A stretch of DNA of 64,000 nucleotides from Halothece sp. PCC 7418. Its GTDB lineage: Bacteria; Cyanobacteriota; Cyanobacteriia; Cyanobacteriales; Rubidibacteraceae. Position 1 is the first letter of the stretch. Every line of letters starts with the position of its first letter. This document shows positions 15,257 through 20,302 of this stretch, piece by piece. Where the stretch lies: assembly GCF_000317635.1 (NCBI RefSeq), contig NC_019779.1:372001-436000 (forward strand), in the 5' to 3' direction. The notes beneath the pieces were generated by a model that was given only the letters and a program-made list of their open reading frames with translations, was not told the origin of the DNA and did no database searches. The translations under genes and the position numbers were made by a program.

Positions 15257-17887
15257 ATGCCTAACGCTCCTCAATATCTTAGCGGGAATCAAATTCGCCA
15301 AACCTTTCTCGACTTTTATGCCAAGCGGGGACATGAAGTGTTACCCAGCGCATCTCTCGTTCCAGAAGATCCGACGGTTTTATTGACCATTGCGGGAATG
15401 CTTCCGTTTAAGCCGATCTTTCTCGGACAAAAAACAGCCCCCTACAATCGCGCGACAACGTCTCAGAAGTGTATCCGCACCAACGATATTGAAAATGTGG
15501 GACGCACCAAACGTCACCATACCTTCTTTGAGATGTTAGGAAACTTCAGTTTTGGCGATTATTTCAAAGAAGAAGCGATTCAATGGGCGTGGGAACTCTC
15601 CACTGAAGGATTTGGTCTTGACCCAGAACGCCTCGTTCCCAGTGTTTATAAAGAGGATGAAGAAGCCTTTGCCATTTGGCGGGATAAAATTGGGGTTGCA
15701 CCGCATCGCATTCAACGCATGGGTGAAGAGGATAATTTTTGGGCTGCGGGTCCCACCGGTCCTTGTGGTCCCTGTTCCGAGATTTATTATGATTTTCATC
15801 CCGAATTAGGGGACGAAGAGATTGATTTAGAAGATGACTCCCGCTTCATTGAGTTTTATAATCTTGTCTTCATGCAGTTTAATCGAGATAGTGAAGGGAA
15901 TCTCACCCCGTTACAGAATCAAAATATTGATACAGGGTTAGGATTGGAACGGATGGCGCAAATCCTACAACAAGTCCCCAATAACTACGAAACGGATCTC
16001 ATTTTCCCGATTATTAAAACCGCTGCAGAAATTGCCAATTTAGATTATTCGCAAGCGGATGAGAAGCAACAAGTCTCTCTGAAAGTAATTGGCGATCACG
16101 TGCGTGCTGTGGTTCACATGATTGCAGATGGGGTAACAGCTTCTAACCTGGGACGCGGTTATATTCTCCGCCGTTTGATTCGTCGGGTGGTGCGTCATGG
16201 ACGGTTGTTAGGGATTACCCGCGAGTTTACCCAAGATGTTGCTGAAAGCGCGATCGCGCTGATGGAAGACCATTATTCTAATTTGCGCGAAGGAGAAAAA
16301 CAAATTAAACAAGAATTACAGCGCGAAGAATCCCGTTTCTTGGAAACCTTAGAACGAGGGGAGAAACTCTTAGGGGAGATTCTGCAAAAAGAAAGCCAAC
16401 AGATTTCTGGCGAGGATGCGTTTGTTCTGTATGACACCTATGGTTTCCCCTTAGAATTAACGCAAGAAATCGCGGAAGAGAAAGGCTTAACCGTGGATCT
16501 CGATGGGTTTGAAGTGGAAATGGAAAAACAACGTCAGCGTTCCCAAGCAGCCCATGAAACCATTGATTTAATGGTACAGGGAAGTCTGGATAAACTGGCG
16601 CAAAGTGTTCATCCCACTGAATTTGTTGGCTATACCAATCCTCACGCTAGCGCAAGAGTGGAAGCAGTCTTAGTACAAGGAAAAACCGTCCAAGAAGCAG
16701 AAGCAGGAGATCAGGTGCAACTGGTGCTGGATCAAACCCCCTTCTACGCCGAATCTGGAGGACAAATTGGCGATCGCGGTTATCTTTCAGGAGATAATCT
16801 CTTAGTCCGTATTGAAGATGTGCAAAAAGAATCTAGCATCTTTGTTCACATCGGACGCATTGAACGGGGAATCATCCGCGTCGGGGATACCGTTACCGCA
16901 ACCATCGATCGCGCCTGTCGTCGTCGCGCTCAAGCCCATCATACAGCAACCCATTTACTACAAGCAGCCCTCAAACAAATCATTGACCCTTCTGTTTCCC
17001 AAGCGGGTTCTTTGGTCGCCTTTGACCGCTTACGATTTGATTTTAACTGTCCCCGTCAAATTACCCCTGACGAGTTACAGCAAGTGGAAGATACCATTAA
17101 TACATGGATTGCTGAAGCCCATGACACGCAATCGGATGTGATGCCTTTTGATGATGCTAAAGAAAAAGGCGCGATCGCGATGTTTGGAGAAAAGTATGAT
17201 GATATTGTTCGCGTCATTGATGTTCCCGGGGTTTCCATGGAACTCTGTGGCGGAACTCATGTCAATAACACCGCGGAAATTGGACTGTTTAAGATTATCT
17301 CCGAAACTGGGATCTCTTCGGGGGTGCGTCGCATTGAAGCCGTCGCTGGTCCTGCTGTTTTAGAATATCTCAACCTACGGGAAAAAATTGTGCGCGATCT
17401 CAGTAAACATTTCAAAGTCCAGCCAGAAGAAGTTCCCCATCGCATTGAAAACTTACAATCGGAACTGAAACAAACCCAAAAACAACTGGATGCGGTAAAA
17501 CAAGAACTCGCCCTTGCTAAATCGGATCAACTCCTTGCTGAAGCAGAAGCAGTGGGAGACTTCCAAGTTTTAGTGACCCAAGTGGAAGCCATGGACGCAA
17601 AAGCCCTACAAACCGCAGCCGAACGCCTCCAACAAAAACTAGGAGAAGCAGCGGTGGTTCTAGGATCAGTTCCCGCAGAAGGAAAAGTTAGTTTAGTGGC
17701 TGCATTTAGCCCAAAAGTGAATGAAAAAGGCTTACAAGCTGGTAAATTTATTGGCGGTATCGCTAAAATTTGCGGTGGTGGTGGCGGGGGTCGCCCAAAC
17801 CTCGCCCAAGCTGGCGGAAAAGATGCGTCTAAGTTACCAGAAGCACTGGAAAACGCGCAAAAGCAGTTGCGGGAACAATTGCAATAA
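15257..17887 (+). CDS. alaS: Alanyl-tRNA synthetase
   Basis: A full-length 876-residue AlaRS. The catalytic domain begins [26 protein letters not shown]. Also seen are [15 protein letters not shown], the tRNA-recognition region, the editing domain with the [12 protein letters not shown] zinc motif and CGGTHV, then a coiled coil and the Gly-rich C-Ala domain ([20 protein letters not shown]). It charges tRNA-Ala and hydrolyses mischarged Ser and Gly. The end of the gene lies about 27 bases from the palindrome of the IsrB-type insertion. Confidence 0.98.
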
Positions 17888-17913
17888 CCAATTTCAACAA
17901 AAGATCCGTGGGA

Positions 17914-17941
17914 CTCCCCCACCTCGGAACAGGTGGGGGAG
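17914..17941. repeat. Right-end palindrome of the IsrB element
   Basis: CTCCCCCACCT (17914-17924) and AGGTGGGGGAG (17931-17941) form an 11-base perfect stem with a 6-base loop. It matches the left-end palindrome in its inner nine bases. It may also terminate alaS transcription, although no T run follows. Confidence 0.8.
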
Positions 17942-17948
17942 GAAAGCG

Positions 17949-17985
17949 GGTGAGTCGATACCGCTCGATGCGGTTGAGACTCACC
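17949..17985. repeat. Nested hairpin just downstream of isrB
   Basis: GGTGAGTC (17949-17956) pairs with GACTCACC (17978-17985). Inside it ACCGC (17960-17964) pairs with GCGGT (17970-17974). It is a two-part stem in the 3' untranslated region of the IsrB-type gene. Confidence 0.7.
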
Positions 17986-17990
17986 ACCTC

Positions 17991-19148
17991 TTAGGCTACG
18001 CATAGACCATTTGACCTCCTGATTAACGTTGTTTTTGACACCGAAAACTGCCCGATTCGCTTCCATTGCCAGTCATACAGCGACATAACTTTATTGACTT
18101 CGCTGTAGCCGCCAATGTACCCGATGGACTCGGTTTTACCTTTAGTAGCACGAACTAAGTCACCCACCCTAAACCCCCAAGGGGTAATAGTTCCGCCTTT
18201 GCGCTTCCTAACTCCGTTTTGACCTGGAATCTCAAAGTGAAGCTGGCGACGGAATACGCCGTACTCCTTGCCACGCTTGACTGCACCAGGGCGAGTGATG
18301 ATGCGAAACTGAGAATTGGTTGTGGTTACCTTACCCTTCCAAGTTTTACCGTGACCACAAGAACTGTGAAAACGCCGAAATTGAATGAAGTACCCGCAAG
18401 CCAAAGCAACACCATCAACAGAATGGGTTTCGGGCTTGGCTTCAGACTTATTTTGCTTATCCTTCACCAGTCCTAATGCAGTGCGAAGCTGAGAAGTGCC
18501 GTTGCCGTCTTTCTGCCATCCTTCACGCACATAAACAGGAGCTATCTTTTCGAGTTCTGAGATACAGAATTGCTGTCCAATCATCACGGGAGAAAAGCCC
18601 TTACCAGAACGCGCACCCTTGCGCCCACTGGTCAGGTCAACATCAGCCCTCACTTTCTCATAACCAATGGCGGTTATGGGGTAAATGCTGGCAATCTCCT
18701 TCACCACTCGAATTTCCAGTTGTCTGGATGCTCGAATAGAGGGAGCTAGCTTTTTGCCTCTGCGATTATCGAACCGCTTTTGGCGATGATTTCTCAGTTT
18801 GAAGGGCACATCCCGATTGATGCGTCGGGAACGACGACTACGACGCAATAAGCGACGTTGATCCATTCGAGATCGAACTCTACCAAATGGCAAAATGAGA
18901 TGCAGTTGGAGCAGTGTGCATTTTGCCGACTGTACCCCAACCCCAGAATAAGATTTGCCAGGGTCTAGTCCCGCCACGACGGGTTGAGTTTCAGTTCCTG
19001 ATGGTTCTTGAAGCAACTGAACGTAGTACAGGCCCAAATCGCTCCACTTGCTAATAGCACGACCTGACTCTATCCATTTACGGGCCCGACTGGGCTTGGT
19101 CGGCATTAGCGGTTGCCCATCTTTGGAAACTACGGGAATTCGGTTCAT
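17991..19148 (-). CDS. isrB: IsrB-like RNA-guided nuclease (PLMP + split RuvC, no HNH)
   Basis: A protein of 385 residues. The N-terminus has the PLMP motif (residues 13-16) that defines the IscB/IsrB group. RuvC-I is AGLDPGKSYSGVGV with Asp62. An Arg-rich bridge helix follows at 98-109 (RRLLRRSRRSRR). RuvC-II is IGYEKVRADVD with Glu164. RuvC-III is ETHSVDGVALA with His242 and Asp245. Only about 80 residues separate RuvC-II and RuvC-III and no HNH or CxxC...CxxC pattern is there, which excludes IscB and points to IsrB. The C-terminal third (FRVGDLVRA at 326-334) fits the target-interaction domain. Known IsrB proteins nick DNA guided by an omega RNA. TnpB is unlikely because of the PLMP motif and the short N-terminus. 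All catalytic residues appear intact. Confidence 0.85.
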   Translation of the reverse strand: MNRIPVVSKDGQPLMPTKPSRARKWIESGRAISKWSDLGLYYVQLLQEPSGTETQPVVAGLDPGKSYSGVGVQSAKCTLLQLHLILPFGRVRSRMDQRRLLRRSRRSRRINRDVPFKLRNHRQKRFDNRRGKKLAPSIRASRQLEIRVVKEIASIYPITAIGYEKVRADVDLTSGRKGARSGKGFSPVMIGQQFCISELEKIAPVYVREGWQKDGNGTSQLRTALGLVKDKQNKSEAKPETHSVDGVALACGYFIQFRRFHSSCGHGKTWKGKVTTTNSQFRIITRPGAVKRGKEYGVFRRQLHFEIPGQNGVRKRKGGTITPWGFRVGDLVRATKGKTESIGYIGGYSEVNKVMSLYDWQWKRIGQFSVSKTTLIRRSNGLCVA

Positions 19149-19410
19149 AGGAGATAATCCCTCCGAATCAGGTTTACGTCTCTTACGCCACGGTTAACGC
19201 TGTGTCCTGGACTAACCCAGTTGGGCGAGATTCCACCCCCTCACATTTAATCCAAACTAGAGAAACATCTGGAGGTGTTTATTCGTTAACCGCTCATGGC
19301 TCTATTCGCAGCTACGGGGAGGTGATCTCTCCCCACTCCCCCACCTCACGAAGTAGGTGGGGGTCATTGAAGCCAGTGGATGAGGAGAAATCAAAATCTC
19401 ACTCCACTGG
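19149..19410 (-). ncRNA. Candidate omega RNA upstream of isrB
   Basis: About 260 bases between the isrB start and the nuclease end have no credible gene but several strong stems: 19373-19380 with 19403-19410 (CCAGTGGA/TCCACTGG plus an inner TGAG/CTCA), the left-end palindrome 19338-19363, and 19316-19321 with 19329-19334 (GGGGAG/CTCCCC). In the IscB/IsrB group the omega RNA is encoded immediately 5' of the nuclease gene, spans the left end and carries its guide at the 5' end, so position, strand and length fit. The 5' limit and guide are uncertain. The guide would come from flanking DNA near 19365-19430. Confidence 0.5.
19338..19363. repeat. Left-end palindrome of the IsrB element
   Basis: CCCCCACCT (19338-19346) and AGGTGGGGG (19355-19363) form a nine-base perfect stem with an eight-base loop. 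The same stem sequence is found at the right end near 17914-17941. Confidence 0.8.
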
Positions 19411-19427: not shown

Positions 19428-20102
19428 CTAGGGAAGACTTTCACAAGCAACACCATCATTATCTCCATCTAAGCGATGGGGATCTTCGGGAAAGCGAGTT
19501 AAAACCTGTTGCGCTTGGGCTTGTGTGGAAAAATGTTTACAGTCACAGTCGCCATCAATACAACTGGGAAGATTTTCAGCCGTTGTTGTGGTCGGAATGG
19601 GCTGATGACGTTCTCCTCGGCGATAATTCCAAGGCATAATGGGATTATGATATGCCCAGATTCCTTGGCGCGATCGCTGCGCTTGTTCTTGAGCATTACG
19701 ATAACGGTTGGCATCACAGGGGTCAATATAGTCTTCATAAACCACAGCTTGTCCTGATCTCACCAGTTTCAAATTCACCAGTTGTCCCTGCTGATACACT
19801 TCCGCAATTTGTCGCCCATAACGACCCGTTGTGATTAAACGTAGTTCCACCGCATCACCAATTGATAATAACCTTTCCATCCACTGTACTGATTCTTCTC
19901 TTCCCCGTTGTCCTCTTTCTGGCGCATCAATACAAGCCAACCGCACTGTAACTTCTTCTCCCTTCTCAATGACCTTAATCGTATCCCCATCGATAACAGA
20001 CGCTACTGTTGCAGGAATTTGTGAAGATTTAGCATTGAGAGTGACCAGAGAGGAAAAAAGTAGTACACTCACAGCACACAGGCTTAATTTAAAGGGGAAC
20101 AT
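19428..20102 (-). CDS. Secreted thermonuclease-like protein with Excalibur domain
   Basis: About 224 residues from the ATG at 20102, which begins a signal-like stretch (MFPFKLSLCAVSVLLFSSLV); a longer GTG start at 20144 is possible. The nuclease domain has the SNase features DGDTIKV, VRLACIDAPE and RYGRQIAEVY, holding the expected Asp, Arg and Glu. The C-terminal 40 residues carry an Excalibur calcium-binding motif (DCDCKHF...DGDNDGVACESL). The protein probably degrades extracellular or periplasmic nucleic acids, Ca2+-dependently. The IsrB-type element lies directly downstream of its stop. Confidence 0.9.
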   Translation of the reverse strand: MFPFKLSLCAVSVLLFSSLVTLNAKSSQIPATVASVIDGDTIKVIEKGEEVTVRLACIDAPERGQRGREESVQWMERLLSIGDAVELRLITTGRYGRQIAEVYQQGQLVNLKLVRSGQAVVYEDYIDPCDANRYRNAQEQAQRSRQGIWAYHNPIMPWNYRRGERHQPIPTTTTAENLPSCIDGDCDCKHFSTQAQAQQVLTRFPEDPHRLDGDNDGVACESLP

Positions 20103-20302
20103 GATATTAAAACCGATTCGATGGCTAATGAGATTTGAAATCACATTACTTCTATGATACCCTTTTTCTTGAGGCGCAATCCCTGAGCTTTCCTCCCATT
20201 ACGAATGATTGAGAACTGCTATATCACCTCCTGTGAGGAGTAAAGGGCAAGGAAGTATCCCTTAAAATAAAAAATATAAGTAGCAGTTTTTTATAGGTCA
20301 AG

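What the first reader, a model, noticed from the sequence alone, without database searches (positions are those of the whole stretch)
17991..19148. IsrB-like RNA-guided nuclease gene in a cyanobacterial chromosome
The 385-residue protein has PLMP (13-16), RuvC-I Asp62, Arg-rich bridge helix (98-109), RuvC-II Glu164 and RuvC-III His242/Asp245, with only about 80 residues and no HNH between RuvC-II and III. That is the IsrB layout, the HNH-less ancestor-like branch of IscB and Cas9, known from few experiments. All catalytic positions seem intact, so it may be active as an RNA-guided nickase.
Basis: partly seen in the sequence, partly recalled or inferred. Interest (0 to 1): 0.85.

Follow-up and report, generated by a model that had tools for sequence, protein, structure and literature searches.

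The report
IsrB RNA-guided nickase transposon
The gene encodes an intact-looking IsrB, a small RNA-guided DNA-nicking enzyme related to Cas9, inside a complete 1.47-kb mobile element with its guide RNA in a cyanobacterial chromosome; this is a new copy of a known kind, but many of its cyanobacterial relatives turn out to sit exactly at the start codons of host genes.

Summary
The finding is right. The 385-aa ORF (17991-19148, minus strand) is an IsrB. Its best solved relative is Desulfovirgula IsrB 8dmb (phmmer 8e-47; AlphaFold model Z 29.9 over 315 residues, above every IscB). D62, E164, H242 and D245 are invariant in 50 homologues, there is no HNH domain, and the TAM-reading Arg/Gln pair is kept.
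The gene lies in a whole tnpA-less element, 17898-19371. The 223 nt upstream of the ORF are an omega RNA scaffold: of 46 tested pairs, 39 have compensatory changes, and both pseudoknots known from DtIsrB are conserved. The element begins at nucleotide 1 of the scaffold, so the guide is the host flank 19372-19391. The other flank starts with TTGA, the DtIsrB TAM. Empty alleles are therefore guide+TAM targets; filled ones are not. IsrB is widespread in cyanobacteria and two cyanobacterial IsrBs were assayed before: a new member of a known kind.
The unexpected result lies next door. A derived cyanobacterial IsrB clade uses ATGA instead of TTGA. In 59 of 80 mapped junctions that ATG opens a host frame of 60 or more codons; two sites were resolved to the base (cphA, pntB). 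The papers searched do not mention this.

The parts
17991..19148 (-). isrB gene, 385 aa: PLMP domain about 1-55, RuvC with bridge helix, C-terminal TAM-interacting domain
17898..19371 (-). whole mobile element (1474 bp), IS200/IS605-like, no tnpA; no target-site duplication
   Evidence: ends set by comparison with 96%- and 94%-identical copies, by micro-element L105, by the position of omega RNA nt 1, and by analogy with base-resolved empty sites of relatives
19149..19371 (-). omega RNA scaffold, from the element's first nucleotide to the isrB start codon
   Evidence: 96% of cells paired, 39 of 46 pairs with compensatory changes, 0 of 500 shuffles as high; RNAalifold 32 of 35 pairs with double changes; adaptor pseudoknot in 49 of 50
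19372..19391 (-). predicted 20-nt guide, host sequence 5'-ATTTCTCCTCATCCACTGGC-3' just outside the left end
   Evidence: guide is 5' of the scaffold in DtIsrB (PMC9581776). Only the donor site itself matches in the genome
17894..17897 (-). TTGA at the right end = predicted TAM of the empty site
   Evidence: same as the DtIsrB TAM TTGA (PMC9581776); shared by three copies and by L105
19338..19363 (-). left-end hairpin CCCCCACCTACTTCGTGAGGTGGGGG, also the first hairpin of the omega RNA
17916..17939 (-). right-end hairpin CCCCCACCTGTTCCGAGGTGGGGG

Best explanation
This is a complete, probably functional non-autonomous IS200/IS605-type element carrying isrB and its omega RNA. Transcription running from the host flank into the left end gives an RNA whose 5' part (the last ~20 nt of the flank) is the guide and whose 223-nt remainder is the scaffold. 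IsrB binds it and nicks the non-target strand of DNA that matches the guide and is followed by NTGA (here TTGA). At the occupied locus the guide sequence is followed by TTCA, the element's own first bases, so the copy does not attack itself; an empty allele (guide + TTGA) is a perfect target. The nick is then expected to favour repair or re-insertion that restores the element after excision, or spreads it to an empty sister copy. Mobility needs a Y1 TnpA in trans, encoded elsewhere in the genome. Shown: the protein family, intact catalytic and TAM-reading residues, omega RNA structure by covariation, element ends, guide/TAM geometry. Inferred: expression, nicking, homing, the TnpA partner.
For: Protein. 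Omega RNA. Element ends and TTGA. Congeners lack the element downstream of alaS, so it is an insertion. Base-resolved empty sites of two relatives show guide|NTGA when empty and guide|[TG]TCA when filled, without target duplication. Two near copies (96% and 94%) sit at different places in G005. Y1 tnpA genes exist elsewhere in the genome. The DtIsrB mechanism, the TAM, and R323/Q326 (aligned by eye to R364/Q367 here) are from PMC9581776.
Against: No transcript or activity data. No base-precise empty site for the window copy itself, because the neighbouring gene order differs in congeners. No tnpA was found beside any isrB held here, so mobility in trans is inferred. The guide matches no second site in this genome, so no current target other than an empty sister allele is known.
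Confidence: 0.88

Rival explanations
1. An IsrB element that is now inert: a fixed relic whose protein and RNA look intact only because the insertion is recent.
For: One intact copy in this genome; the second isrB is split by a group II intron; no tnpA in the element.
Against: All catalytic and TAM residues and both pseudoknots are intact; near-identical copies at other sites in G005 point to recent movement.
Confidence: 0.15
2. A domesticated regulator: nuclease-competent or not, it binds its guide target to control a host gene, as nuclease-dead TnpB relatives (TldR, from memory) do.
For: In the related ATGA clade the guide covers the ribosome-binding region of a host gene, so binding an empty allele would cover a translation start.
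Against: The catalytic residues are kept; the window copy sits between convergent genes, so its guide covers no start codon; patchy presence and absence is that of a mobile element.
Confidence: 0.04
3. The protein is an IscB or a TnpB/RuvC relative of another family.
For: The NCBIfam IscB model matches residues 6-171.
Against: That match is at 96.6 bits, below the cut-off of 175; IsrB 8dmb outranks all IscBs by sequence and structure; no HNH domain.
Confidence: 0.01

Closest known systems
DtIsrB of Desulfovirgula thermocuniculi (PDB 8dmb, PMC9581776)
   Same: PLMP, RuvC, bridge helix, HNH linker, TAM-interacting domain; omega RNA upstream of the gene with adaptor and nexus pseudoknots; TTGA TAM; no HNH
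   Different: About 38% identical over 315 aligned residues; scaffold about 223 nt against 262 nt; 385 against 353 residues
CwIsrB and DsIsrB (Crocosphaera, Dolichospermum; PMC9581776)
   Same: Cyanobacterial IsrBs with the same pseudoknot arrangement, shown to nick DNA with an NTG TAM
   Different: Their sequences were not compared here; I do not know whether they fall in the TTGA grade or the ATGA clade
IscB (OgeuIscB and others, PDB 7utn, 7xht)
   Same: PLMP and RuvC core, omega RNA with a 5' guide
   Different: IscB has an HNH domain and cuts both strands; this protein has none
IsrB insertion at ATGA in phage Mic1 gene gp49 (PMC11237433)
   Same: A cyanobacterial IsrB element inserted at an NTGA motif
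   Different: There at an internal ATGA of a phage gene; start-codon sites are not discussed in the passages read

Membership tests
IsrB | N-terminal PLMP domain | tested here: met
   PLMP at 13-16; Pfam RRXRR E=2.6e-49; strands 4-45 in the model
IsrB | RuvC I-III catalytic residues intact | tested here: met
   D62, E164, H242, D245 invariant in 50 homologues
IsrB | No HNH domain between RuvC-II and RuvC-III | tested here: met
   78 residues between E164 and H242 with only short elements in the model; Z 29.9 with 8dmb end to end
IsrB | Arg-rich bridge helix | tested here: met
   helix 88-109; R102, R105, R106, R109 invariant
IsrB | Omega RNA upstream of the gene with adaptor and nexus pseudoknots | tested here: met
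IsrB | NTGA TAM at the element border and conserved TAM-reading Arg/Gln | tested here: met
   TTGA at 17894-17897; R364 invariant and Q367 at least 90% conserved
IsrB | RNA-guided nicking of the non-target strand | not testable with these tools
   needs a biochemical assay
IscB | HNH domain and match to the IscB equivalog model | tested here: not met
   NF040563 at 96.6 bits against a cut-off of 175, N-terminal half only; no HNH
IS200/IS605-type element | Subterminal hairpins at both ends, insertion at a fixed tetranucleotide without duplication | tested here: met
   hairpins; for relatives, empty sites without duplication; for the window copy, ends by copy comparison
IS200/IS605-type element | Mobilised by a Y1 TnpA | tested here: inconclusive
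   no tnpA in any isrB element held; Y1 tnpA genes elsewhere in the genome, one with similar end hairpins

The most novel reading that the evidence does not exclude
Cyanobacterial IsrB elements split into a TTGA grade (to which the window copy belongs) and one large derived ATGA clade. By taking ATGA as target and TAM, the clade inserts exactly at host start codons: between the ribosome-binding region, which becomes the guide, and the ATG, which stays with the gene. Some right ends carry a replacement Shine-Dalgarno-like motif (AAGGAG or GGAGG plus a short spacer). The insertion leaves the coding sequence intact while the RNA-guided nickase keeps watch over an empty site that the host cannot easily lose.
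Probability: 0.6. Interest if true: 0.65.

Novelty: new member of a known kind. Interest (0 to 1): 0.45.

Why it matters
The element gives a complete, readable example of IsrB in its natural setting: protein, RNA, guide, TAM and both ends. The empty and filled alleles of its relatives show to the base why an occupied site is safe and an empty one is a target, which makes the proposed homing role of IsrB directly testable in culturable cyanobacteria. If the start-codon pattern holds, it is a simple way for a mobile element to sit at important genes (cphA, pntB, leuD, metH, secF) without breaking their reading frames.

Tried and rejected
Rfam finds no family on the omega RNA at gathering or relaxed thresholds, so a de novo alignment was used. 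A base-precise empty site for the window copy failed: all five congeners lack the element after alaS but have other neighbours. A second genomic target for the guide was sought; only the donor site was found. Chance and selection as causes of the start-codon pattern: plain chance is rejected (59/80 against 19.4% of ATGA sites in the flanks). Selection against insertion into genes explains part of it: among start-like plus non-coding ATGA sites about 28% are start-like, against 39/71 observed, p=2.5e-6; gene calling in that null was crude. Automatic right-end mapping failed for 35 of 144 loci and misplaced a few (for example L035, L147), so the counts are approximate. The Kapitonov, Altae-Tran and Meers papers are not held, so prior mention of the start-codon pattern there cannot be excluded.

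Full report
OBSERVATION. The ORF is at 17991-19148 on the minus strand, 385 aa, ATG start. The window is bases 372001-436000 of a one-contig genome of 4,179,170 bp. The gene lies between alaS (15257-17887, plus) and a nuclease-like gene (SNase plus Excalibur domains, 19428-20144, minus).

PROTEIN. Pfam gives RRXRR over residues 4-180, E=2.6e-49. The NCBIfam IscB model matches only residues 6-171, well below its cut-off. phmmer against PDB sequences puts DtIsrB 8dmb first (8e-47, two stretches covering the RuvC part and the C-terminal TAM-interacting part); IscBs follow at 6e-9 and worse. An AlphaFold2 model from 50 homologues has mean pLDDT 85.9 and pTM 0.84. Foldseek ranks 8dmb first (3e-30). 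VIA-align gives Z 29.9, rmsd 3.1, 315 residues aligned, 38% identity; the best IscB is 23.4 and RuvC resolvases are about 11. D62, E164, H242 and D245 are invariant in 50 homologues, as are the bridge-helix arginines and R364; Q367 is at least 90% conserved. By the alignment, counted by eye with PLMP prolines 17 and 20 as anchor, R364 and Q367 are DtIsrB R323 and Q326, which read the third and fourth TAM bases (PMC9581776).

OMEGA RNA. The 223 nt between the left end and the ATG align with the same region of 49 relatives. RNAalifold predicts 35 pairs, 32 with double-sided changes. With the terminal stem and the nexus pseudoknot added, 96.0% of cells pair (shuffled 71.4%), 39 of 46 pairs have compensatory changes, and sliding the partners by one to three columns destroys the signal. 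The first element base is U or G and pairs with A or C in 50 of 50. The adaptor pseudoknot (SL2-SL5; GAGAU with AUCUC here) is present with four or more Watson-Crick pairs in 49 of 50, against a mean of 24 and a maximum of 33 after dealing partners at random. This is the arrangement reported for DtIsrB, CwIsrB and DsIsrB. Rfam has no model that fits.

ELEMENT, GUIDE, TAM. Copies 96% and 94% identical in G005 share the sequence up to TTTG|TTGA on the right; one contig of G005 begins exactly at TTCAATGACC on the left. A roughly 50-bp micro-element elsewhere in the genome (L105) fuses the same left and right ends and again abuts TTGA. Element: 17898-19371, 1474 bp; TTGA at 17894-17897; predicted guide ATTTCTCCTCATCCACTGGC from 19372-19391. 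All five congeners lack the element after alaS. The guide plus NTGA occurs nowhere else in the genome. No Y1 tnpA was found beside any isrB locus held; the genome has nine Y1 matches, and one tnpA+tnpB element (L010) has similar end hairpins.

START CODONS. In the relatives the right end mostly abuts ATGA rather than TTGA. Among 108 deduplicated mapped elements, 80 are ATGA-type, and in 59 of them that ATG opens a frame of 60 or more codons, against 1 of 28 TTGA-type and 19.4% of ATGA sites in the flanks. With the left end known, 39 of 71 also have an in-frame stop within 99 nt upstream in the rejoined flanks, against 7.0%; against a stricter non-coding null of 28% the excess is about twofold, p=2.5e-6. 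Profile matches begin at or near residue 1 for cyanophycin synthetase, LeuD, MetH, PntB, SecF, HpsL, sulfate adenylyltransferase, glutathione synthetase, a response regulator and others, so these are true gene starts. Two empty sites were resolved: cphA, AGCTATATC|ATGAAAATT (or AGCTACATC) in nine of ten element-free congeners (the tenth also matches across the junction) against AGCTATATC|GTCACTAACC...CG|ATGAAAATT in G099 (G571 carries the same insertion); pntB, AAGGAGGCTAAAGC|ATGAATCTG in G076 against AAGGAGGCTAAAGC|GTCAATTACC...GGAGGTTTTT|ATGAATCTG in G092. In the second, the host Shine-Dalgarno is left outside and the element supplies GGAGG. On a protein tree TTGA versus ATGA needs 6 changes (shuffled mean 22.4), most ATGA rows form one supported clade, and the window copy lies just outside it; at least some of the remaining changes look like mapping errors.

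MECHANISM. From PMC9581776 an IsrB RNP nicks the non-target strand next to NTGA. The geometry here makes an empty allele a target and a filled allele not. Homing after excision is the most likely benefit; that step is inferred, by analogy with work on TnpB and IscB known to me from memory.

NOVELTY. The window element is a new member of a known kind. The start-codon pattern of the sister clade was not found in the papers searched, of which PMC11237433 reports an IsrB insertion at ATGA inside a phage gene. Key subscription papers were not available, so novelty of the pattern is unsettled.

Noticed in passing
L078:2369-6012 (G000:C1:715368-719011), L259, L258: The genome's second isrB is split by a ~2.5-kb group II intron with its own reverse transcriptase, directly after the RuvC-I motif (GIDPGKN|GTGCGATTCG); a distant species (G095) has a group II intron at the identical codon and another a few codons further on.
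   Followed up: partly
L025, L029, L090: Group II intron 3' ends (Rfam RF00029) lie inside or at the left end of the omega RNA of other IsrB elements.
   Followed up: partly
L105:1500-1560 (G000:C1:1115762): A roughly 50-bp micro-element made of the IsrB left-end hairpin fused to the right end, again followed by TTGA: probably a deletion product between the two terminal palindromes.
   Followed up: partly
L106 (G000:C1:1238720): A near-perfect palindrome of the IsrB left end (TTCAATGACCCCCACCT...AGGTGGGGGTCATTGAA), possibly a snap-back relic.
   Followed up: no
L010 (G000:C1:~1181000-1183000): Divergent tnpA and tnpB-like genes flanked by CCCCCACCT/AGGTGGGGG hairpins like those of the IsrB element: a candidate transposase donor in trans.
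   Followed up: partly
window:19372-19412: Just outside the left end the host flank holds a long inverted repeat (CCAGTGGAGTGAG...CTCATCCACTGG) that contains part of the predicted guide; the guide may therefore be partly folded, or the repeat may be the terminator of the convergent genes.
   Followed up: no
G000:C1:489019-489504 (L079): A third, distant RRXRR relative in a 455-aa open frame, in the size range of IscB.
   Followed up: no
window:17994-19148: PHROG family 32617 (unknown function) matches the protein end to end (1e-141): the family has phage-borne members and could be annotated as IsrB.
   Followed up: no
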